Source: a virus. From it: a DNA stretch of 28,309 nucleotides. Each line of letters opens with the position of its first letter. Position 1 is the stretch's first letter. The stretch is from the IMG/VR virus record IMGVR_UViG_3300030109_004998, positions 1 to 28,309 of that record; one strand, written 5' to 3'. The position numbers and the translations under genes are program-made. The notes beneath the pieces are model-generated. The model ran no database searches. It had not been told where the DNA came from and was given only the letters and a program-made list of their open reading frames with translations. This document shows positions 5,660-28,309 of this stretch, piece after piece.

Positions 5660-6898
5660 ATGAAAGACCAAATTACATATAACGGAAAAAAATACAAAAG
5701 AGTTGACGAGGATAAAACTTTAAAAGAGTTTATGCGAGACACACCTACTGATGCAGCTGAAAAACAAAAATTAAAAAATCCGAAGAACGGTAAAGAAGTT
5801 ACAGTTAGGTCTATAATGAATCAAGGTACAAGGAAATATCCATCTGCATTAGTTAAAAAAGCAAACGCAATATACAAGAAAGCTTTGGAAAAGGAACAAA
5901 AAGCCAGAAATAAGTTTCATAAAGACAGAACCAAAAAGTATAGTTTCAGAGGTGATAAAAAAGAAGGTGTAAGTGAAAGTCTTGATAGACGAGTAACTGT
6001 AAAAGAAGTTCGCTCTTGGTTAAAAAAATTAGAAGAGTTTCGTTATAGAAAAATAAGAAATGTTGATGCTAGAAGAGTTACTTCTTTTATCAATAGTAAT
6101 TTAAGTGAAACAGATTTACCTAATTCTTTACAGAAGAAGTGGGAACACGCCAAATACGGTAGAGAAAAACATTTGGCAGACAAATTCATCAAAGAAAAAA
6201 TTAGTCAGAAGTGGAGCGAGATTGCTCAAAATGAGGGTGTTGAAATGAAAAATATTAGTTTATTAGGAATAGTAGAAGACCTTGTGCCAGTTAAGGAACG
6301 AGAGCAAGGGGTAAACAAGTTCGAGGTCATTGAGGCTGTAAAAAACTATCAGATGATAGGTGGACAACTTTTCAAAGACAATGGTATTATTGAAGTTGCT
6401 AAACAACTTGTTGGTATTGCCGAATCTGCTCAAAATCATGTACTAAGTGAAACCGATGATTGGTTTGATTCTGTTTCTGTTAAAAGAAATATGAAAGAGT
6501 TAAAAGGTTTAACAGGTCAATTTAAAAAAGCTGCTCTTGAAGCCAATGCCGTAAACGAAAGATTAAGTGCTTTATATGAAGACATGGGACATATTTTAAA
6601 TAGATACTATGATATTGAGGAAGCTATGGATCCTGTTGGTAAAGAAGATGATGATGTCGATAACGATGGTGATGTTGATGATAGTGATAGATACTTAAAG
6701 AAAAGAAGAGATGCTATTTCTAAAAATATCAAAAAAGAAGAAGTTGATACTAAAAGTATCGATGATAGAATATCAAAAAATGTAGAAAAAATAAATAAAT
6801 TGAAAGAAAAAAGACCAGTGCCAACTAACGATGTTGCTAGATTAGTAGGTCTGAATAACGCACTTAGAGATAAAAAGAAAAAATTACAGAAAAAGTAA
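5660..6898 (+). CDS. Helical protein with EF-hand-like calcium loop, probable virion protein
   Basis: A 412-residue charged protein. Residues 1-100 form a basic module with TLKEFMRDTPTDAAEKQ, VRSIMNQGTRKYPSALVKKA and KARNKFHKDRTKKYSF. Residues 105-325 are helical. Residues 332-343 (DVDNDGDVDDSD) place Asp at loop positions 1, 3, 5, 7, 9 and 12, a textbook EF-hand or dockerin-type calcium loop; it is followed by RYLKKRRDAI. The C-terminus is a lysine-rich coiled coil. I recall DNDGDVD-x-SD-x-YL modules from marine T4-like virion proteins, which would fit a structural role. Reaction unknown. The ATG at 5660 lacks a visible ribosome site, so the start is uncertain. Confidence 0.55.
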   Translation: MKDQITYNGKKYKRVDEDKTLKEFMRDTPTDAAEKQKLKNPKNGKEVTVRSIMNQGTRKYPSALVKKANAIYKKALEKEQKARNKFHKDRTKKYSFRGDKKEGVSESLDRRVTVKEVRSWLKKLEEFRYRKIRNVDARRVTSFINSNLSETDLPNSLQKKWEHAKYGREKHLADKFIKEKISQKWSEIAQNEGVEMKNISLLGIVEDLVPVKEREQGVNKFEVIEAVKNYQMIGGQLFKDNGIIEVAKQLVGIAESAQNHVLSETDDWFDSVSVKRNMKELKGLTGQFKKAALEANAVNERLSALYEDMGHILNRYYDIEEAMDPVGKEDDDVDNDGDVDDSDRYLKKRRDAISKNIKKEEVDTKSIDDRISKNVEKINKLKEKRPVPTNDVARLVGLNNALRDKKKKLQKK

Positions 6899-20275: not shown

Positions 20276-21408
20276 TGGCACTAGAAAATTTAAAATCAGC
20301 TTATAACGACTTAAGTGAAAATCAAGCTAAAAGAGCTGAAAGAAGATCACAAGCAAATAATGTAAAAACATCATATGGTAATATAAGTGACAATCTAGCC
20401 GAAAGAAATAAAAGAAGGTTAGAAGGTAGACTTAAAAGAGATCAATTGGTTAAAGAAACCGAAGACTTAATAAAAGGTCGTGAAGCAAACAAACCACTAA
20501 ATCCATTTCAATTAAGTGTGGGTGATATTGCTAATCCAGTTTTGGGTGGACTTGAATATTCAGACAGAGCTAAAATTGGAGCATCTTTTGAAAATCTTGG
20601 AGATAATCCAGTAAATATAATAGACAAAGCAGTTAATGAAGCACTTAATAAAATACCTGATATACCAAAACCAGATAATCCACTATTAGGTGCTGTCGTT
20701 GACGAAGCCAATAGAGCTATTGATACTGCAAAAGTAAGGGTGTTAAGAGAACTAGAAGAAGCATCTCAACTTCCTGTTCTTGGAAGACCAACACCTTTTA
20801 TAGATTTGGGAAGAGGTCCTGGAGAAACTAATTACATTGACCTTGTTTCATTACATCCTGTTACTAAAACTAAAGTTGATGACGAAATAGCTCCAGAAAA
20901 AAGAGGGGACTTTTATGTAAGAATAAAAGATTTAAGAGATGGTAAACACATTTATTTTAGAGGTTATGTTACTGGTATAACTGAAAATGTAAGTCCGTCA
21001 TTTACACCCACTAATTACATTGGTCGAAGTGAACCTGTTTATATGTATGAGAGAGCAGAAAGAGACATAAGTTTTAATTTGAAAGTGTATCCTGCAAACT
21101 ATACTGAACAAAAGATTATGTATGAAAAAATGGAAAGACTAACTTCATTGGCATATCCTCAGTATTTACCTGATAGTGATGGTTTAACAAGAATGAAACC
21201 ACCATTTGTAGAACTATACATGGCTCACATAGGAAAACGAGACAAAGGTCAGTTTGGTTTTATAAAATCAATTTCGTATACTGTTAATGAACAAGGTGAT
21301 TGGGATGCTCTAAGGTCTTTAGCAAGACACTTTGATATAGCAATATCATATCAAATACTAAACAAAAAACCACCGCAGTTAAATGATAGGTTTTATGGAG
21401 CATACTAA
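20275..21408 (+). CDS. Baseplate tail-tube / tube-initiator protein (gp48/gp54-like)
   Basis: A 377-residue protein. The first 150 residues are charged helices (NLAERNKRRLEGRLKRDQLV). The C-terminal 180 residues form a tube-fold-like domain: GDFYVRIKDLRDGKHIYFRG, YVTGITENVSPSFTPTNYIG, VYMYERAERDISFNLKVYP, a helix EQKIMYEKMERLTSLAYPQY and GQFGFIKSISYTVNEQGDWD. This is the pattern of T4 gp48/gp54 and equivalents, which sit at the baseplate centre and start tube growth. Position between tape measure and gp53-like genes fits. It is coupled on both sides by TAATG overlaps. Which of gp48 or gp54 it equals is not decidable by eye; one protein may do both jobs. Confidence 0.68.
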   Translation: MALENLKSAYNDLSENQAKRAERRSQANNVKTSYGNISDNLAERNKRRLEGRLKRDQLVKETEDLIKGREANKPLNPFQLSVGDIANPVLGGLEYSDRAKIGASFENLGDNPVNIIDKAVNEALNKIPDIPKPDNPLLGAVVDEANRAIDTAKVRVLRELEEASQLPVLGRPTPFIDLGRGPGETNYIDLVSLHPVTKTKVDDEIAPEKRGDFYVRIKDLRDGKHIYFRGYVTGITENVSPSFTPTNYIGRSEPVYMYERAERDISFNLKVYPANYTEQKIMYEKMERLTSLAYPQYLPDSDGLTRMKPPFVELYMAHIGKRDKGQFGFIKSISYTVNEQGDWDALRSLARHFDIAISYQILNKKPPQLNDRFYGAY

Positions 21409-21677
21409 TGAGTAGATACAATAATACAACAAAAATCCAAAACAAAAATTTTGTTTCAATTGGGACATCTTATCTTCCAAAATTTGAAGAAAGTAATTCA
21501 GATGTACTTCTTATTGCGACAGAAGGTGATAGGTGTGATTTAATATCACAAGAATATTACGGAACACCAGAACTTTGGTGGTATATAGCTTCAACAAATA
21601 ATTTAAAATCAAATAACATCGAAGCTGGAACTCAGTTGAGGGTGCCTATTTCTACAGAACAAGCAACCATAAAGTAA
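21408..21677 (+). CDS. gp53: Baseplate wedge gp53-like / LysM-type small protein
   Basis: An 89-residue protein. The core is LLIATEGDRCDLISQEYYGT, then PELWWYIASTNNL, then EAGTQLRVP, which is the LysM-like pattern of T4 gp53 (EEIANAIYGNPQLYWVLLMCND) and of the P2 gpX family: a helix that selects a Y-G, then P-x-x-W/Y-W and N, and a closing strand. Such proteins bind between hub and wedge and recruit them in the baseplate. At 89 residues it holds little besides that domain, compared with 196 in T4 gp53. It is coupled to the upstream gene by a TAATG overlap and lies one base before the large hub-like gene. Confidence 0.65.
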   Translation: MSRYNNTTKIQNKNFVSIGTSYLPKFEESNSDVLLIATEGDRCDLISQEYYGTPELWWYIASTNNLKSNNIEAGTQLRVPISTEQATIK

Positions 21678-21678
21678 A

Positions 21679-24600
21679 ATGGATTTATCAAAAAAAGTTT
21701 TTGGTGCGAATGTTGACAAAACAATTCGTGATTACTTCAAATTCTTACAAGAAGGTACTTTTGAAATACAACCAGGCGATCCTGTTCAGAAAAAATCTAT
21801 TGGGGTATCATTTGATAGCGAGACTTATTTAGGTGACAGAACTCCCTATGCTAGAATGTGGACTGCTGTTAATGCATATGAGGCTAAATACAACTCTGAA
21901 GATAAAAAGTATGAGAGGATAGAGGCTGGTAAAGTTAACATATACACAATAAACGAAAACTTAAATGACTCATATAATGAATTAGATTCAGTATCAAATC
22001 AAAAATATCAACCAGAACTTCAAGATAATCCTTATTTTAAACCAACATCAGGTATAACCTCAGTAAATTCTAAATCAGAGGGTGCAGTTGGTGCTTTAAG
22101 AAGGACGACTGTAAATTTTACTGTTCACAATAAACATGATTTTGACAACATATTTTTACCTTTTTTTTTAAAACCGGGCGCTACTGTATTTGTAGACTTT
22201 GGTTGGTCTGATAAAGCTTTAACTTTATATAACCCAAACGATAAAGTAAGTAACAAAAATTTAAATATGGCTAATTTTTATGAAAGTATTTATCCTGACA
22301 AAGATGGTATAAAAAAAGGTTTTACAACAACGGTTAGTGGTCAAGTAACAAAATATGATGTTAATGTTGATGAAAAAGGTTCATTTAATTGTAGTTTAGA
22401 GTTTGTATCATCTAATTATTCTTTGTTAGATAAAACGATTAGTGATGATAATAATTTAAAATTTATATTTGATAATTCAATAGAAGAATTATTAATGGGA
22501 TACTTTTTAGCATTTTCTGGTATTCAAATAGATGTTGATGCTCTTATTGCTGGTAATAATAGACTTACAGCAAAACAAAGAAAGTCTTTAGTAAAAGACT
22601 TTTTTGATGATGACGAAAGGAGATATCAACAAGGAATAGATCAATCATTAGGAATGATTGATTTGATTTCACGAAAATCAGGAATATATTATCAAAATGT
22701 AATACATGGTGATTCGGAAGAAGACAAATTAGGTGACAAAGAAGCTGTTTACATTTCGTATGGTTTATTTGAAGATAAGTTTTTAAATCAGTTTATTTCT
22801 TTTTGGCAATATTTTGACGATGAGGGAAATGATACTACAAAAATAGAAGAAAAAACAAATCCGTTTGCAAATAGTTTTAGTAGTAAAGACTCTTGGGCTA
22901 GATTTGATGCTGATTTATTAAGTTTACAAAAACAAAAATTCTATAGTGATGACGATAGACTTTCTTTTTTATATCCAGAGACTTGGAACGATACATATAA
23001 TAAATTGAAACCGACTGGTTGGGAAGATGCTGGTGGAGTTGATAATGACATAGAAAAAAGAAGAATACCATTAAGAGATTTATTTATATCCGTGCCCACC
23101 ATATCTGAAGCATTTAAAAAAAGTCAAAATGTAAACGATGCACTTGAATTTATTTTTGACCAAATATATGAAGACTCTGGCAATATCATTAACATCAAAA
23201 TGATTTCTAATAATGACGCACAAGTATCATTAACTTTTACTGATATCAATGTTTCAGCAGAATTGTTTGATGATGAAGTATTAATGTTTGATACCACATC
23301 AGGAAACACAGTAGTTCTTAATTCAGATTTGAAGTTTGAGACTCCAAAAGCTGGATTATCAAGTATGATTGCTATAGGAAACTTATCAGAACCACAATAT
23401 TTTGATGAATTAGAATTGATGAAATTTAATTTTTTAAATTCTATTATAGTTGATCCTGAAGCAACAGATAAAAAATATCAAATAAAACATTTACCAGACT
23501 ATGGAGATCCTCCAAAAAGATACAAAGCTTTGACTGTGAATATGAATGATATAATAGCAAAAGAAACTGATATTAGGGGTTCTTTTATAGATCCTTCACA
23601 AAATTATAATACAAATAATTTAGTTAAAGGTGATTATCAAAATTATTTAGATAAGAAAAAAGACCTTTTAGAACCTGGTTTTTGGGAAAAAATGTTTGGA
23701 AAGCCATCTGATGAAACTGAAACAGATGATGTGGTAAATGTAGAAGCTGAATTAGAAACAGAGATGCCTGATGGTACACCAATTCTTTACGCTAAAAGTA
23801 ATAGAGATTTAAAATTATTAAATGCAAAAAAGAATAATTTTATAAGTCCGAAAAATAATACTATTTCACCTGTTTTACCTGTTAATTTAACATTAAAAAT
23901 ATATGGAAATAATTTTTTGGGTATCGGTGATTTTTTCACGATTAATTTTTTACCAAAACATTATCAAGAAAGAGTTTATTTTCAAATCGTAGGAGTTGAC
24001 CATAGCATTGGAACTTCGATGTGGGACACGACATACACTACTGTAATGAGATTAAAACCTAATGAAAAACAAAAAACATTTAGTTATAATAAAAATCAAA
24101 ATTTACCAGTAGTTAAACTACATCCACTTTATGAAGAAAAAACAGCAGAAGATATGAGTAAGAATCAAGGTGGCGCTCAGTATGATGGAAAGGATGTAGA
24201 AACTACTAAATTAGCTGTAAAGGGCATAAGAAAAGATATAGAGGTTATTAAAACTACTGCTCCTAATAATGATAGAGCAAATATGTCATATGATGATATA
24301 CCTAGTCTAAGTTGGGCAAGGTCATTTTTTATTTGGGATTCTGAAAATAAAAAAGAAAAACAAAAAAAAGCTGGTATAGGTAAACGGTCTAACAAATTAA
24401 TAAATGGAGTTCAAATACCAGAGACGATAGATTCTGGAGAATTAGCTTGGTGGATTGCTATGACAAATGCTTTAATAAGTGACGATTTTATAGATTGGTC
24501 ACTTTTAAAAGATAAAGGAACACCTTTTTCATTATTCAATACTAATAAACAAGCAGATGTGGTTGGAAGAGCAAAACCAGGAGTTTTTGTATCACAAAGA

Positions 24601-25074
24601 CCATTTGGTGATGAACTTATAGATAACTTCGACCAACCAGGAGCATCTTGGGGACTAGATGATTTTCAAGAATCATTGTTAGAAAAACTTAGCTATTATA
24701 AAGATAGACAAAAAGTTTCACAATTTTTAGAAGAGTATTTATTTTTTAGTAAAGATTTAAATTTACTATATGGGATATATTGGGATGTCTCTACAAAAAC
24801 TTTTCTCTACAACACAAATGACCAACTAGAAGGGGTAGGGGTTCATTTTTATGAGATTAGTGTAAGTGGTCACTCAGATACATCTATTTTTCCATCTTTT
24901 GTTATACCAAGTCAACTCTATAAACCACAAGGTTTAAAAGATTTAGCAAATAAAGTTTGGACTAATTACTGCACGATAAAAGCAGATTTGAAAGTAATTT
25001 TTGAATCTGATGAAAGAGAGATGGATTCTATTAAAACTATTGCAGATGATCCAGAAGCTGGTTTCGTAGGATAA
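21679..25074 (+). CDS. Very large baseplate hub-like structural protein
   Basis: A 1131-residue protein, the largest in the window. Residues 125-185 contain VGALRRTTVNFTVHNKHDFD then FLPFFLKPGATVFVDFGWSD, a pattern I associate with baseplate hub proteins (strand-rich region, then a hydrophobic loop with W). Residues 225-265 (GQVTKYDVNVDEKGSFNCSL) continue in the same style. LKIYGNNFLGIGDFFTINFL and RVYFQIVGVDHSIGTSMWDT near residues 740-785 are typical of the hub beta-barrel end (compare T4 gp27 and gpD-like hubs). Residues 800-1131 are a separate C-terminal part with GELAWWIAMTNALISDDFID and LNLLYGIYWDVSTKTF, which I do not recognise. It may combine hub and another baseplate function. No lysozyme motif is visible. 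Confidence 0.6.
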   Translation: MDLSKKVFGANVDKTIRDYFKFLQEGTFEIQPGDPVQKKSIGVSFDSETYLGDRTPYARMWTAVNAYEAKYNSEDKKYERIEAGKVNIYTINENLNDSYNELDSVSNQKYQPELQDNPYFKPTSGITSVNSKSEGAVGALRRTTVNFTVHNKHDFDNIFLPFFLKPGATVFVDFGWSDKALTLYNPNDKVSNKNLNMANFYESIYPDKDGIKKGFTTTVSGQVTKYDVNVDEKGSFNCSLEFVSSNYSLLDKTISDDNNLKFIFDNSIEELLMGYFLAFSGIQIDVDALIAGNNRLTAKQRKSLVKDFFDDDERRYQQGIDQSLGMIDLISRKSGIYYQNVIHGDSEEDKLGDKEAVYISYGLFEDKFLNQFISFWQYFDDEGNDTTKIEEKTNPFANSFSSKDSWARFDADLLSLQKQKFYSDDDRLSFLYPETWNDTYNKLKPTGWEDAGGVDNDIEKRRIPLRDLFISVPTISEAFKKSQNVNDALEFIFDQIYEDSGNIINIKMISNNDAQVSLTFTDINVSAELFDDEVLMFDTTSGNTVVLNSDLKFETPKAGLSSMIAIGNLSEPQYFDELELMKFNFLNSIIVDPEATDKKYQIKHLPDYGDPPKRYKALTVNMNDIIAKETDIRGSFIDPSQNYNTNNLVKGDYQNYLDKKKDLLEPGFWEKMFGKPSDETETDDVVNVEAELETEMPDGTPILYAKSNRDLKLLNAKKNNFISPKNNTISPVLPVNLTLKIYGNNFLGIGDFFTINFLPKHYQERVYFQIVGVDHSIGTSMWDTTYTTVMRLKPNEKQKTFSYNKNQNLPVVKLHPLYEEKTAEDMSKNQGGAQYDGKDVETTKLAVKGIRKDIEVIKTTAPNNDRANMSYDDIPSLSWARSFFIWDSENKKEKQKKAGIGKRSNKLINGVQIPETIDSGELAWWIAMTNALISDDFIDWSLLKDKGTPFSLFNTNKQADVVGRAKPGVFVSQRPFGDELIDNFDQPGASWGLDDFQESLLEKLSYYKDRQKVSQFLEEYLFFSKDLNLLYGIYWDVSTKTFLYNTNDQLEGVGVHFYEISVSGHSDTSIFPSFVIPSQLYKPQGLKDLANKVWTNYCTIKADLKVIFESDEREMDSIKTIADDPEAGFVG

Positions 25075-25113: not shown

Positions 25114-26307
25114 ATGATTAAATTGGTTATTTCTAAACCTAACTGGTCCAAGTCTCACCCGTTAAATGACTTAGTTTTAGCTTACGATGCTATAGAACAT
25201 AAGTTAGTTTACGCTAATCATTATGAGAAGATGACTGTTGATATAGATTATCCAGATGAAGGTATGTTGATTGATGATTGGAAAGCTGGATACTCTTATG
25301 ATTTTGCTGGTCGCCCACAATATTGTGCTGATATCTTAAACTATTGGATATTAAACCAACCACTTGAACATATACAATGGGACAACTTTTACGACCAAGA
25401 TGATTTTACATATTACTATCCGTTAGATAAGATGATAGAACAATTATGTGAAAAAGTTCCACAATATGATAGTATGTATAATGGAGAGACATTTATTAAG
25501 TTTCACAATGACTTTATAAATGCTTTCGGTGAGTTAGAATCAAATGGTATCGGAGTCAATACAGATTTCACCAAGATATTCGGTGACCATATGTTAAAGT
25601 ATATTCACAAGAAGAAGATATATCAGAACTATAACTTTTTTACAACTACATCAAGACCATCTAACTCTATTCACAATCTTAACTTTGCTGCTCTTACACA
25701 AGAACAAAGAAAGGCATTCTCTCCACTTAACGATGTATTCGTAGAGTTTGATTTTGAGTCGTATCACCCAAGATTGATTGCCAAACTAATTGATTATGAC
25801 TTTGGTAATAAGTCGGTCTATGGTAAGTTAGCAGAAGACTTAGGTGTGACAGAGGGAGAAGCAAAAACACTAACATTTCAAAACTTATATGGTGGTGTCA
25901 GAAAAGACATTGCTAAGATGAGTGAGTTTTTCAGAGGTGTGGAAGATTTGGTAAAAGTATTTTATGACGAATATATGACTCGGAATAGAATCTTAACACA
26001 TATTTATAAACGACCAATGAAGAGAGCTAATTTAGGTGATCTAAATGCTCAGAAGTTATTTAATTATTACATACAGGCGTATGAAACAGAGCGGAATGTT
26101 ACTATCTTAAAAAAATTACACACATATTTATTAGAGAGAAAGACTAACATAGTCCATTACAACTATGATAGTTTTTTATTTGATTATGCCAAGGAAGATG
26201 GAAAGGAAACAATACATGACATCCAAAAAATCTTACGACAAGATAATTTTATTATACACAGTAAAGTCGGTAACACTTATGGGACATTAACAGATTATGA
26301 GTTTTGA
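25114..26307 (+). CDS. Compact, diverged family A (Pol I-like) DNA polymerase
   Basis: A 397-residue protein with the family A polymerase motifs in order. LESNGIGVN (141-149) matches the thumb-side LExxGxxVD. TTTSRPSNSIHNLNF (177-191) matches TGRLSS...PNLQN. Motif A is EFDFESYHPR (Asp213). Motif B is EAKTLTFQNLYGG, with Lys251, Phe255 and Tyr259-Gly260 at the spacing of Pol I Lys758, Phe762 and Tyr766. QAYETERNVTILKK (321-334) matches the QGTAAD helix. Motif C is HYNYDSFLF (Asp352 for Asp882). Odd points: His218 replaces Glu710, Glu247 replaces Arg754, and Ser353 follows the motif C Asp instead of Glu. There is no 3'-5' exonuclease domain. T4 uses a family B polymerase, so this is unexpected. 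It overlaps the next gene by 11 bases. Confidence 0.85.
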   Translation: MIKLVISKPNWSKSHPLNDLVLAYDAIEHKLVYANHYEKMTVDIDYPDEGMLIDDWKAGYSYDFAGRPQYCADILNYWILNQPLEHIQWDNFYDQDDFTYYYPLDKMIEQLCEKVPQYDSMYNGETFIKFHNDFINAFGELESNGIGVNTDFTKIFGDHMLKYIHKKKIYQNYNFFTTTSRPSNSIHNLNFAALTQEQRKAFSPLNDVFVEFDFESYHPRLIAKLIDYDFGNKSVYGKLAEDLGVTEGEAKTLTFQNLYGGVRKDIAKMSEFFRGVEDLVKVFYDEYMTRNRILTHIYKRPMKRANLGDLNAQKLFNYYIQAYETERNVTILKKLHTYLLERKTNIVHYNYDSFLFDYAKEDGKETIHDIQKILRQDNFIIHSKVGNTYGTLTDYEF

Positions 26308-28105
26308 TTTAGGAAAACTTTTTATAGAGTGGAGACGAATTGTCCCAAATGGTGTACCAAATCCTAACAATGATTATCACCTCGTTTTATTAAAAGAAAT
26401 TTGTCTATCAAAAGGTATTGATAAAGACATTGTTGATAATGTTATCTTGACATTAGAACAAGACGATAAAGTTAAATGGAAAGATAAAGATGGTAAAGAT
26501 AGAGAAACATCTTTAGATACAATCAAACAATATGCTAGTGATATAAAGAAAGGTGACTCGGACAAAAATAAAAAACTTGCTGTAACGGCTGCTGGTTTAG
26601 ATGACAAAGAAAAAGGTGGTGAAGAAGATAAAAAAGAAAAAGAAAAACAGAGTATAGATTTTTCTACTGATACATATACCGATTCTCTGTCAAGTAAGAA
26701 AGATGACGACATTGATGATAGTGATACTGATACTCAATCTCAACAAAAGGAGAGAATTATCAATGGGAAAAATAAAACTTTAAAGAAAGTAAATTCATCT
26801 GAGACAGAAACATTTACAGAAGATATTGAGCCAGATGATGATGAATTCAAGAATGACTTGGAGATAGGAGAACCGCCACCTAAATTTGAAATACCTGAAG
26901 AGTTAAATAAAGGTAAGTTTCCAAAAAAATATACAAAGTTAATAAGTAGAATGATGAATAGTAAAAGAGTTGGCACTAAACCTGAAATATCCACTTTGAT
27001 TTCAAAAGGTGGAGCGGGTGCAATATCAGCACAAGCAGGTGAAGTGTTAACCATGATGGCAACTTCTATGGGTGATGACGAATGGGAGAGTTTACAAAAT
27101 TCTATGTTAGACCATGAGAAAGCAACAATAGAAAATAATGCTGATTTAAAAGCACCTGGTAAAAGAGTAATAAATAAAAGTTGGATATTGGCAGCTGGTA
27201 AGAGTAGAAAAGCCATTAGAGATAGAATTATGAAAAAATACGGCGAAGGAGTTGAGATATCTAATACTGCTTGGGATACCGAAGAAGATGTTAATGCTAT
27301 GGGTTGGGACGATTACAATGGTTCAAAAGGTTTTTCAACAGACATGTATGTAAAAGTGACAACTAAAGATGGTGAAGATATTATGGATGAGGTGTCTCTT
27401 AAAAAGGATGTAAAAATAAACTTTTTGAATTCTTCTACTGGTAAATTTAGAGAATGGGATGAAGATAGTGTTGGTAGTGAGATTGATGCAAAAGAATATT
27501 CAAATAAAGAAAGAGATAGTCTTAACAAAGCTATTGAAGAATTTGGATTAGATTTGCCTAAACCAACAAGTAGAAAATCAGCAAAAACCGTATGGATGGC
27601 TATGGTTGAAAAAACTGATTATGATACAAAAACAGGTAGAATGACAACAAGTAATCCCCCAACAAAAGAAGAAGAATGGGTTCAGTCTCATGTAAAACAA
27701 ATAAGAGATTACACTGCAAGTGCAACAAGAGCAGTAGTTGACAATCCTAAATTAAAAGCAGGTATGTTAGAAGATATTAGAAAAGAGTTTCCTTTAAAAT
27801 CTGTTGGTGAGGGTGAGGAGACTATGGCAATAGGAGATTTAAGTTTAGATCCAGATACAATGCAAGAGTTATTTGGAACTTCTGATTTTGAAAAAATTAA
27901 AGAGAATCTAGTAGTAAATGAAGATGTAGATCCACCAGCACTTGCTTATAAAGCAGGTCTTGAAGATGAGATGTTTAATGTAGCAAGTATCGTTATAAGA
28001 CAAGATGGTGTTGGATATGGTGGTAGCTCAATGAAATTTGAGATGCAAATGGATAAAGAATTTGCTAATAAATTAAAAGATTCTCATAAAAAGGTGTATG
28101 GATAA
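26297..28105 (+). CDS. Large unknown protein, possible nuclease-like domain
   Basis: A 602-residue protein overlapping the polymerase by 11 bases. Residues 1-60 (LGKLFIEWRRIVPNGVPNP, then LVLLKEICLSKGI) form a small helical module. Residues 85-200 are acidic, low-complexity linker. Residues 205-300 are helical. Residues 295-385 hold SWILAAGKSRKAIRDRIMKK, a conserved-looking NTAWDTEEDVNAMGWDD, then STDMYVKV and EVSLKKD. Asp349 followed by Glu365-x-Ser-Leu-Lys369 on consecutive strands recalls PD-(D/E)XK nucleases with a SLK motif. That is a weak match by eye. The C-terminus (VASIVIRQDGVGYGGSSMKF) is strand-rich. Function is unknown; either a DNA-processing partner of the polymerase or a virion protein is possible. 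Confidence 0.55.
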   Translation: MSFDLGKLFIEWRRIVPNGVPNPNNDYHLVLLKEICLSKGIDKDIVDNVILTLEQDDKVKWKDKDGKDRETSLDTIKQYASDIKKGDSDKNKKLAVTAAGLDDKEKGGEEDKKEKEKQSIDFSTDTYTDSLSSKKDDDIDDSDTDTQSQQKERIINGKNKTLKKVNSSETETFTEDIEPDDDEFKNDLEIGEPPPKFEIPEELNKGKFPKKYTKLISRMMNSKRVGTKPEISTLISKGGAGAISAQAGEVLTMMATSMGDDEWESLQNSMLDHEKATIENNADLKAPGKRVINKSWILAAGKSRKAIRDRIMKKYGEGVEISNTAWDTEEDVNAMGWDDYNGSKGFSTDMYVKVTTKDGEDIMDEVSLKKDVKINFLNSSTGKFREWDEDSVGSEIDAKEYSNKERDSLNKAIEEFGLDLPKPTSRKSAKTVWMAMVEKTDYDTKTGRMTTSNPPTKEEEWVQSHVKQIRDYTASATRAVVDNPKLKAGMLEDIRKEFPLKSVGEGEETMAIGDLSLDPDTMQELFGTSDFEKIKENLVVNEDVDPPALAYKAGLEDEMFNVASIVIRQDGVGYGGSSMKFEMQMDKEFANKLKDSHKKVYG

Positions 28106-28309
28106 TGAAAACACAATTACTATGTACATTCACGACTCAACATAATCTTGAGCAATCAATTCGTGACATTACGAAAAACTTCAAGGTCGTGTTCGATAAA
28201 ATTTATGTATTACAAAATGAGGACAAACCAAAGGAATTAATTTGTACTTATAATGTCAATCAAGAAGATGATATAGATTTTAATAGTGTAAAGAATACAA
28301 TATCTTTAC
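28105..28309 (+). CDS. Unknown protein, 3' end outside window
   Basis: The ATG overlaps the previous stop as TAATG and the frame is open to the window edge, giving 68 residues so far. It begins MKTQLLCTFTTQHNLEQSIR and continues DITKNFKVVFDKIYVLQNED, then ELICTYNVNQEDDI. The alternating strand, helix, strand, strand pattern suggests a small alpha/beta domain. I recall similar small proteins in marine phages but no assigned function. Coupling with the upstream gene suggests joint expression with the polymerase unit. Confidence 0.6.
   Translation, partial: MKTQLLCTFTTQHNLEQSIRDITKNFKVVFDKIYVLQNEDKPKELICTYNVNQEDDIDFNSVKNTISL

What the first reader, a model, noticed from the sequence alone, without database searches (positions are those of the whole stretch)
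25114..26307. Minimal family A DNA polymerase in a T4-like genome, with unusual active-site substitutions
T4-like phages replicate with a family B polymerase. Here a 397-residue Pol I-like enzyme follows the baseplate genes. Motifs A, B and C are present with both catalytic Asp (213, 352), but the residues equal to Pol I Glu710, Arg754 and Glu883 are His218, Glu247 and Ser353. There is no exonuclease domain. It may be a repair or specialised polymerase, or evidence of a swapped replication system.
Basis: partly seen in the sequence, partly recalled or inferred. Interest (0 to 1): 0.75.

Follow-up and report, generated by a model that had tools for sequence, protein, structure and literature searches.

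The report
Thumb-less accessory phage DNA polymerase (divPolA1)
The window carries a small, stripped-down relative of DNA polymerase I that some T4-like viruses keep in addition to their normal replication polymerase; the family was described in 2024 as divPolA1, and this work adds that it is almost always found beside one small conserved protein of unknown function that may be its partner.

Summary
Window 25114-26307 (+) encodes a 397-residue family A polymerase with both catalytic Asp (D213, D352) and His218, Glu247 and Ser353 where Pol I has Glu710, Arg754 and Glu883. It is a member of divPolA1, a family already described (Yutin et al. 2024, PMC11348598).

An AlphaFold2 model (pLDDT 90.9) matches KlenTaq/Bst large fragment at Z 26 along its whole length. 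The N-terminus is therefore a shrunken, dead exonuclease domain rather than nothing, and the thumb is nearly gone: 38 residues where E. coli Pol I has 126.

It is not a swapped replicase. A 92%-identical relative encodes a proofreading family B gp43 about 14 kb downstream. Twelve of thirteen IMG/VR contigs over 100 kb tested with both polymerase models have a separate full-length polymerase (B or A).

New here: His218 and Tyr351 (Pol I His881) are invariant; the Arg754 position is not conserved. An uncharacterised ~131-residue neighbour is tied to divPolA1: 153/153 loci one way, 43/43 the other, and the same 6 of 50,697 phage records.

Likely role: a low-processivity, non-proofreading accessory polymerase for short gaps, perhaps with that neighbour as partner. 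No activity has been shown.

The parts
25114..26307 (+). divPolA1 gene: 397-aa divergent family A DNA polymerase
   Evidence: family described in PMC11348598
25114..25413 (+). residues 1 to about 100: shrunken, degenerate 3'-5' exonuclease-fold domain without conserved catalytic acids (domain limit approximate)
   Evidence: model aligns from residue 1 to KlenTaq 306 / Bst 317; no invariant acid in the first 104 columns
25537..25656 (+). residues 142-181: region between the E-x-x-G-I-x-V element and T-S-R, where the thumb should be; 38 residues between the anchors instead of 126 (E. coli) or 216 (immuto gp199)
   Evidence: DSSP of the model
25741..25776 (+). motif A, VEFDFESYHPRL: D213 (=D705), H218 (=E710, invariant)
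25852..25893 (+). motif B / fingers helix, E247 (=R754, variable), K251, F255, Y259, G260 (invariant)
26152..26187 (+). motif C, Y351 (=H881, invariant), D352 (=D882), S353 (=E883, A or S)
26297..28105 (+). 602-aa protein of unknown function, overlapping the polymerase gene by 11 bp; found in only some divPolA1 loci (44 of 178)
28105..28309 (+). 5' part of the ~131-aa conserved partner-candidate gene, cut by the window end (starts in TAATG with the 602-aa gene)
   Evidence: same gene whole in G001
21679..25074 (+). 1131-aa large upstream protein of the tail/baseplate module; homologue upstream in 174 of 182 eligible loci
21408..21677 (+). baseplate wedge (gp25-like) protein
   Evidence: phrog_7145, E 2.7e-9; 133 of 141 eligible loci

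Best explanation
The gene encodes a member of the divPolA1 family: a Klenow-like DNA polymerase with intact palm/fingers chemistry (two-metal Asp pair, O-helix Lys/Phe/Tyr), a dead and shrunken exonuclease domain and almost no thumb. It works in addition to the virus's replicase. Shown here by computation: the fold, the conserved active site, purifying selection, the second-polymerase status, and the fixed position between the baseplate module and the SSB - RecA - 5' nuclease - helicase cluster. Inferred: because the thumb holds the primer-template duplex, the enzyme should be poorly processive and non-proofreading alone, suited to short synthesis such as filling gaps left by the neighbouring 5' nuclease (RNA primer or flap removal) or extending RecA-paired 3' ends. 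In effect it would be a Pol I split into separate 5' nuclease and polymerase genes. His218 in place of the Glu710 steric gate should alter, not abolish, sugar selection. The invariably neighbouring ~131-aa protein is the best candidate for a subunit that supplies the missing grip on DNA or recruits the enzyme to SSB or forks.
For: AlphaFold2 models pLDDT 90.9 and 93.5. VIA-align Z 26.4 to KlenTaq, 26.9 to Bst, spanning the whole chain. Pfam DNA_pol_A detected in 29 of 67 members, best E 7e-13. Catalytic and fingers residues 67/67 and in 45-46 of 46 further members. Thumb gap of 38 vs 126 residues, and Pfam matches of the mini-enzymes start only at profile position ~100, against 25-27 for the full-length Pol A of the same genomes. 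Replicative PolB or full Pol A elsewhere in the genome. SSB 126/126, RecA 97/97, 5' nuclease 83/84, helicase 69/71 downstream on the same strand. Partner candidate: 153/153, 43/43 reciprocal, same 6 phage records. dN/dS 0.09-0.15. The published description agrees on palm, thumb and exonuclease.
Against: No activity is known to me for any divPolA1. Four residues used by Pol I to bind or select the dNTP or position the primer (E710, R754, H881, E883) are changed. The gap-filling role rests on gene neighbourhood alone, and the whole cluster is co-inherited within one virus lineage, so adjacency is weaker evidence than it looks. The partner idea has no structural support.
Confidence: 0.6

Rival explanations
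1. divPolA1 is the main replicase and the 'regular' polymerase is the auxiliary one.
For: It sits next to SSB, RecA, helicase and 5' nuclease in every lineage, and Yutin et al. note that the context of the regular polymerases is less clear-cut.
Against: No proofreading activity expected and no thumb. In the marine lineage gp43 (exo+ pol+) sits directly with clamp-loader genes gp44 and gp62, and a similar arrangement is in Mel-JY01. Immuto has a 777-aa Pol A with the exonuclease DxE motif.
Confidence: 0.1
2. It is a translesion or mutagenic polymerase (damage bypass, diversity).
For: No exonuclease activity expected; altered dNTP-contact residues; it lies next to RecA.
Against: O-helix residues Lys/Phe/Tyr are strictly kept, and no sequence feature points specifically to lesions.
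Confidence: 0.2
3. It makes RNA, or RNA/DNA primers (primase or RNA polymerase), using its altered sugar gate and T7 RNA polymerase-like Asp-Ser in motif C.
For: The Glu710 position is His in 67/67, and Glu883 is Ser/Ala, as Ser in T7 RNA polymerase (comparison with T7 RNAP is from my own knowledge). An RNA-polymerase reading was raised for the related divPolA2.
Against: The top 50 VIA-align rows are all DNA polymerases, and the N-terminus keeps the exonuclease-domain fold of DNA polymerases. Complete or large genomes with divPolA1 carry a gp61/DnaG primase (immuto, Mel-JY01, G013, G014, G016, G018, G023, LR756508).
Confidence: 0.1
4. It is an inactive polymerase fold reused as a baseplate or virion protein, given its place after the baseplate genes.
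For: Baseplate-module gene immediately upstream in 174/182 loci.
Against: Catalytic residues invariant across a very diverse family; replication genes directly downstream; strong purifying selection.
Confidence: 0.05

Closest known systems
divPolA1 (Yutin et al. 2024, Virol J 21:200, PMC11348598; e.g. Flavobacterium phage immuto gp001)
   Same: Homologous sequence (31% over 73% of the chain to immuto gp001), palm with catalytic residues, truncated thumb, dead exonuclease domain, second polymerase next to replication genes.
   Different: This member is shorter (397 vs 441 aa in immuto), comes from a marine T4-like lineage whose long contigs have a family B replicase, and carries Glu247 where most members have Tyr.
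Bacterial Pol I large fragment (Klenow, KlenTaq, Bst)
   Same: Overall fold, Z 26; two Asp, Lys758/Phe762/Tyr766, Asn845/Gln849 equivalents.
   Different: No real thumb, smaller inactive exonuclease domain, E710H, R754 lost, H881Y, E883 to A/S, no attached 5' nuclease.
divPolA2 of barbaviruses (same paper)
   Same: Extra, divergent family A polymerase beside a regular PolB, without a standard thumb or exonuclease activity.
   Different: divPolA2 has an unrelated N-terminal domain and a variable neighbourhood; here the N-terminus is an exonuclease-like fold and the neighbourhood is fixed.
T7 RNA polymerase (single-subunit RNAPs)
   Same: Related palm; lacks the equivalents of Glu710 and Glu883 (own knowledge).
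   Different: No exonuclease-like domain (own knowledge); RNAPs did not appear among the top 50 structural rows.

Membership tests
divPolA1 | Detectable homology to named members (immuto gp001) | tested here: met
   tblastn E 1e-34, 31% identity over residues 89-376; one clade with the immuto group, SH-aLRT 100, long stem
divPolA1 | Palm domain with main catalytic residues conserved | tested here: met
   D213, D352, K251, F255, Y259 67/67; alignment to Pol I
divPolA1 | Thumb truncated | tested here: met
   38 residues between anchors vs 126 in E. coli Pol I; family range 22-40; only two short helices there in the model
divPolA1 | Exonuclease domain present as a fold but catalytic acids lost | tested here: met
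   Model aligns from residue 1 with large-fragment chains; no invariant acid in the N-terminal 104 columns. Residue-by-residue structural superposition was not available.
divPolA1 | Encoded in addition to a regular DNA polymerase | tested here: met
   Not in the 28 kb window itself, but in the 100 kb contig with a 92%-identical copy and in nearly all long contigs tested
divPolA1 | Conserved replication genes downstream | tested here: met
   126/126 SSB, 97/97 RecA, 83/84 5' nuclease, 69/71 helicase among eligible loci; the window ends before them
Canonical family A DNA polymerase (Pol I / T7 gp5 type) | Complete thumb | tested here: not met
Canonical family A DNA polymerase (Pol I / T7 gp5 type) | Pol I residues E710, R754, H881, E883 | tested here: not met
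   H218, E247, Y351, S353
Canonical family A DNA polymerase (Pol I / T7 gp5 type) | DNA-templated polymerase activity | not testable with these tools
   needs purified protein
divPolA2 | N-terminal globular domain unlike any known domain | tested here: not met
   the N-terminus aligns with Pol I large-fragment chains
Single-subunit RNA polymerase (T7 type) | RNA synthesis from a promoter | not testable with these tools
   fold comparison favours DNA polymerases but does not exclude it

The most novel reading that the evidence does not exclude
divPolA1 is the catalytic half of a two-protein polymerase. It has lost its own thumb, and the ~131-residue protein encoded just downstream in every lineage (no Pfam, PHROG or PDB relative) replaces the thumb in trans or acts as a dedicated processivity or targeting subunit, an arrangement I do not know from any family A polymerase.
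Probability: 0.25. Interest if true: 0.75.

Novelty: new member of a known kind. Interest (0 to 1): 0.42.

Why it matters
Polymerases normally need a thumb to hold DNA. A widespread viral family that keeps the catalytic core under strong selection while losing thumb, proofreading and the Glu sugar gate asks what the minimum working family A polymerase is, and whether another protein supplies the grip. The reciprocal linkage to one small protein turns that into a simple test. It also explains a class of metagenomic genes that Pfam and PHROGs mostly miss, and warns against reading a lone Pol A-like gene in a T4-like contig as a replaced replicase.

Tried and rejected
Swapped replicase: rejected by PolB or full Pol A in the long contigs. 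Family C replicase: none in the ten records tested, including G019, the one long contig without A or B; that contig is a fragment, and Yutin et al. report family C in some divPolA1 genomes. Split polymerase with the exonuclease in another ORF: not supported, since a degenerate exonuclease domain is already present and the regular polymerases carry their own. Replacement for a missing primase: first suggested by empty searches with Toprim_4 and Zn_ribbon_DnaG, but those models also miss T4 gp61 itself; a gp61/DnaG alignment found primases in the complete Mel-JY01 and other large genomes. PDB sequence search gave only Klenow at E about 0.1. Single-sequence Pfam and PHROG scans of the window protein gave nothing useful. 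GenBank records of divPolA1 named in the paper (MK892584, LR796625) were not held. The tree shows one clade on a long stem, but with only three outgroups its place inside family A cannot be read. RNA polymerases were not among the top 50 structural rows, which does not exclude them.

Full report
What is there. The ORF at 25114-26307 (+) codes for 397 residues. Pfam and PHROGs give nothing useful for this protein alone, but tblastn finds the 'DNA polymerase family A' gp001 of Flavobacterium phage immuto, a hypothetical protein of Microcystis phage Mel-JY01 and an uncultured 484 kb phage. IMG/VR holds 89 direct relatives, and hundreds more when immuto's or Mel-JY01's copy is the query. Twenty-nine of 67 diverse members hit Pfam DNA_pol_A, best E 7e-13.

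Active site. Across 67 members the two metal-binding Asp, the fingers residues Lys251/Phe255/Tyr259, Asn317/Gln321, His218 and Tyr351 never vary. Position 353 is Ala or Ser. The position of Arg754 is not conserved (Tyr in 52, Glu in 8). A further 46 members found independently through the neighbouring gene show the same pattern. dN/dS of 0.09-0.15 says the protein is under purifying selection.

Architecture. The model of the window protein (pLDDT 90.9) matches KlenTaq and Bst large fragment with Z about 26 over 341-379 aligned residues, from model residue 1 to 394. A model of an immuto-type member gives Z 26.9. The N-terminal ~100 residues are therefore a small exonuclease-like domain, but no catalytic-acid pattern is conserved there. 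Between the E-x-x-G-I-x-V element and the T-S-R element, where Pol I carries its thumb, there are 38 residues (family 22-40) against 126 in E. coli Pol I and 216 in immuto's full Pol A. Pfam matches agree: they begin at profile position ~100 in the mini-enzymes and at 25-27 in full-length Pol A of the same genomes.

Not a replicase swap. The 100 kb contig G001 holds a 92%-identical copy. Its order is: large baseplate-module protein, divPolA1, a 628-aa protein, the 131-aa protein, a thioredoxin-like protein, gp32-type SSB, RecA, 5' nuclease, gp41-type helicase, and about 14 kb from divPolA1 gp43 (family B with exonuclease and polymerase domains), followed by clamp-loader gp44. The 130 kb contig G002 and Mel-JY01 are alike. 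Thirteen IMG/VR contigs over 100 kb carrying divPolA1 were searched with both the family A and the family B model: six have PolB (G001, G002, G020-G023), six have a separate ~780-aa Pol A (G013-G018) and one fragment (G019) has neither. Of the public phage records, Mel-JY01 and LR756508 have PolB and immuto has a full Pol A. No family C polymerase was found in the ten records searched. Primases of the gp61/DnaG type occur in the complete Mel-JY01 and immuto genomes and in other large ones. The enzyme is thus an extra polymerase whatever the replicase is.

Neighbourhood. Among loci with enough flanking sequence SSB is downstream in 126/126, RecA in 97/97, 5' nuclease in 83/84 and helicase in 69/71; the baseplate-module protein is upstream in 174/182, always on the same strand. 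The ~131-aa protein is downstream in 153/153. Searched on its own, it matches exactly the same six of 50,697 phage records as divPolA1, whereas the SSB reaches 21 records. Starting from the small protein, all 43 loci with at least 2.6 kb of upstream sequence have divPolA1 there. It is 35-46% identical between lineages, more than divPolA1 itself (26-30%). It has no Pfam, PHROG or PDB relative of note. In the window it starts at 28105 and is cut by the window end. Caution: all these genes are core genes of one virus lineage, so co-inheritance alone could give this pattern.

Known or new. During the analysis I found that the family is published: Yutin et al. 2024 (PMC11348598) named divPolA1 in 14 phages including immuto, with palm residues kept, thumb truncated, exonuclease inactivated, a second 'regular' polymerase of family A, B or C, and replication genes downstream. 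A text search found the name in that paper and its preprint only. The window gene meets every feature of that description that could be tested. What I add is the much larger family, the invariant His218/Tyr351 with a non-conserved Arg754 position, the placement of PolB in a canonical gp43-gp44 cluster in the marine lineage, the presence of primases, and the reciprocal link with the small protein. Neither text mentions that protein in the passages I read; their figures and supplements were not visible to me.

How it most likely works. Inference: two-metal DNA synthesis by a Klenow-type active site, without proofreading and with weak hold on DNA, hence short patches. The neighbouring separate 5' nuclease, SSB and RecA suggest gap filling after primer or flap removal, or synthesis from recombination intermediates. 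The small neighbour may supply grip or targeting. In the tree the family is one clade, SH-aLRT 100, on a long stem.

Noticed in passing
window 28105-28309 (cut); whole in L262:16405-16800, L081:1346-1801, L085:20903-21292: ~131-aa conserved protein of unknown function reciprocally linked with divPolA1 and more conserved than it; no Pfam, PHROG or PDB relative.
   Followed up: partly
L262:16800-17342 (contig G001): Thioredoxin-like gene between the ~131-aa gene and SSB; T7 polymerase uses thioredoxin as processivity factor (own knowledge), but the gene is absent at this place in G002.
   Followed up: partly
contig G022 (L241), 53555-55532 (-): Family B polymerase split into two ORFs of 610 and 306 aa, possibly an intron, inserted gene or split gene.
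   Followed up: no
LR756508.1, 260623-266900: Family B polymerase matches spread over two ORFs (1022 and 625 aa) about 4 kb apart in a 484 kb phage that also has divPolA1.
   Followed up: no
L276 and L277: divPolA1 genes on contigs binned into a Nitrosopelagicus MAG and an uncultured bacterium MAG; probably viral contigs misbinned.
   Followed up: no
MT837804.1 3693-4493 and MT839648.1 3130-3654: Weak matches (24-29%) to immuto divPolA1 in human faecal phage fragments; possible distant relatives.
   Followed up: no
window 26297-28105: 602-aa protein of unknown function between divPolA1 and the ~131-aa gene, overlapping the polymerase gene by 11 bp; found in 44 of 178 eligible loci.
   Followed up: partly
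window 5660-6898: 412-aa protein with a cytidyltransferase-like PHROG match (E 3.7e-7) inside the structural gene region.
   Followed up: no
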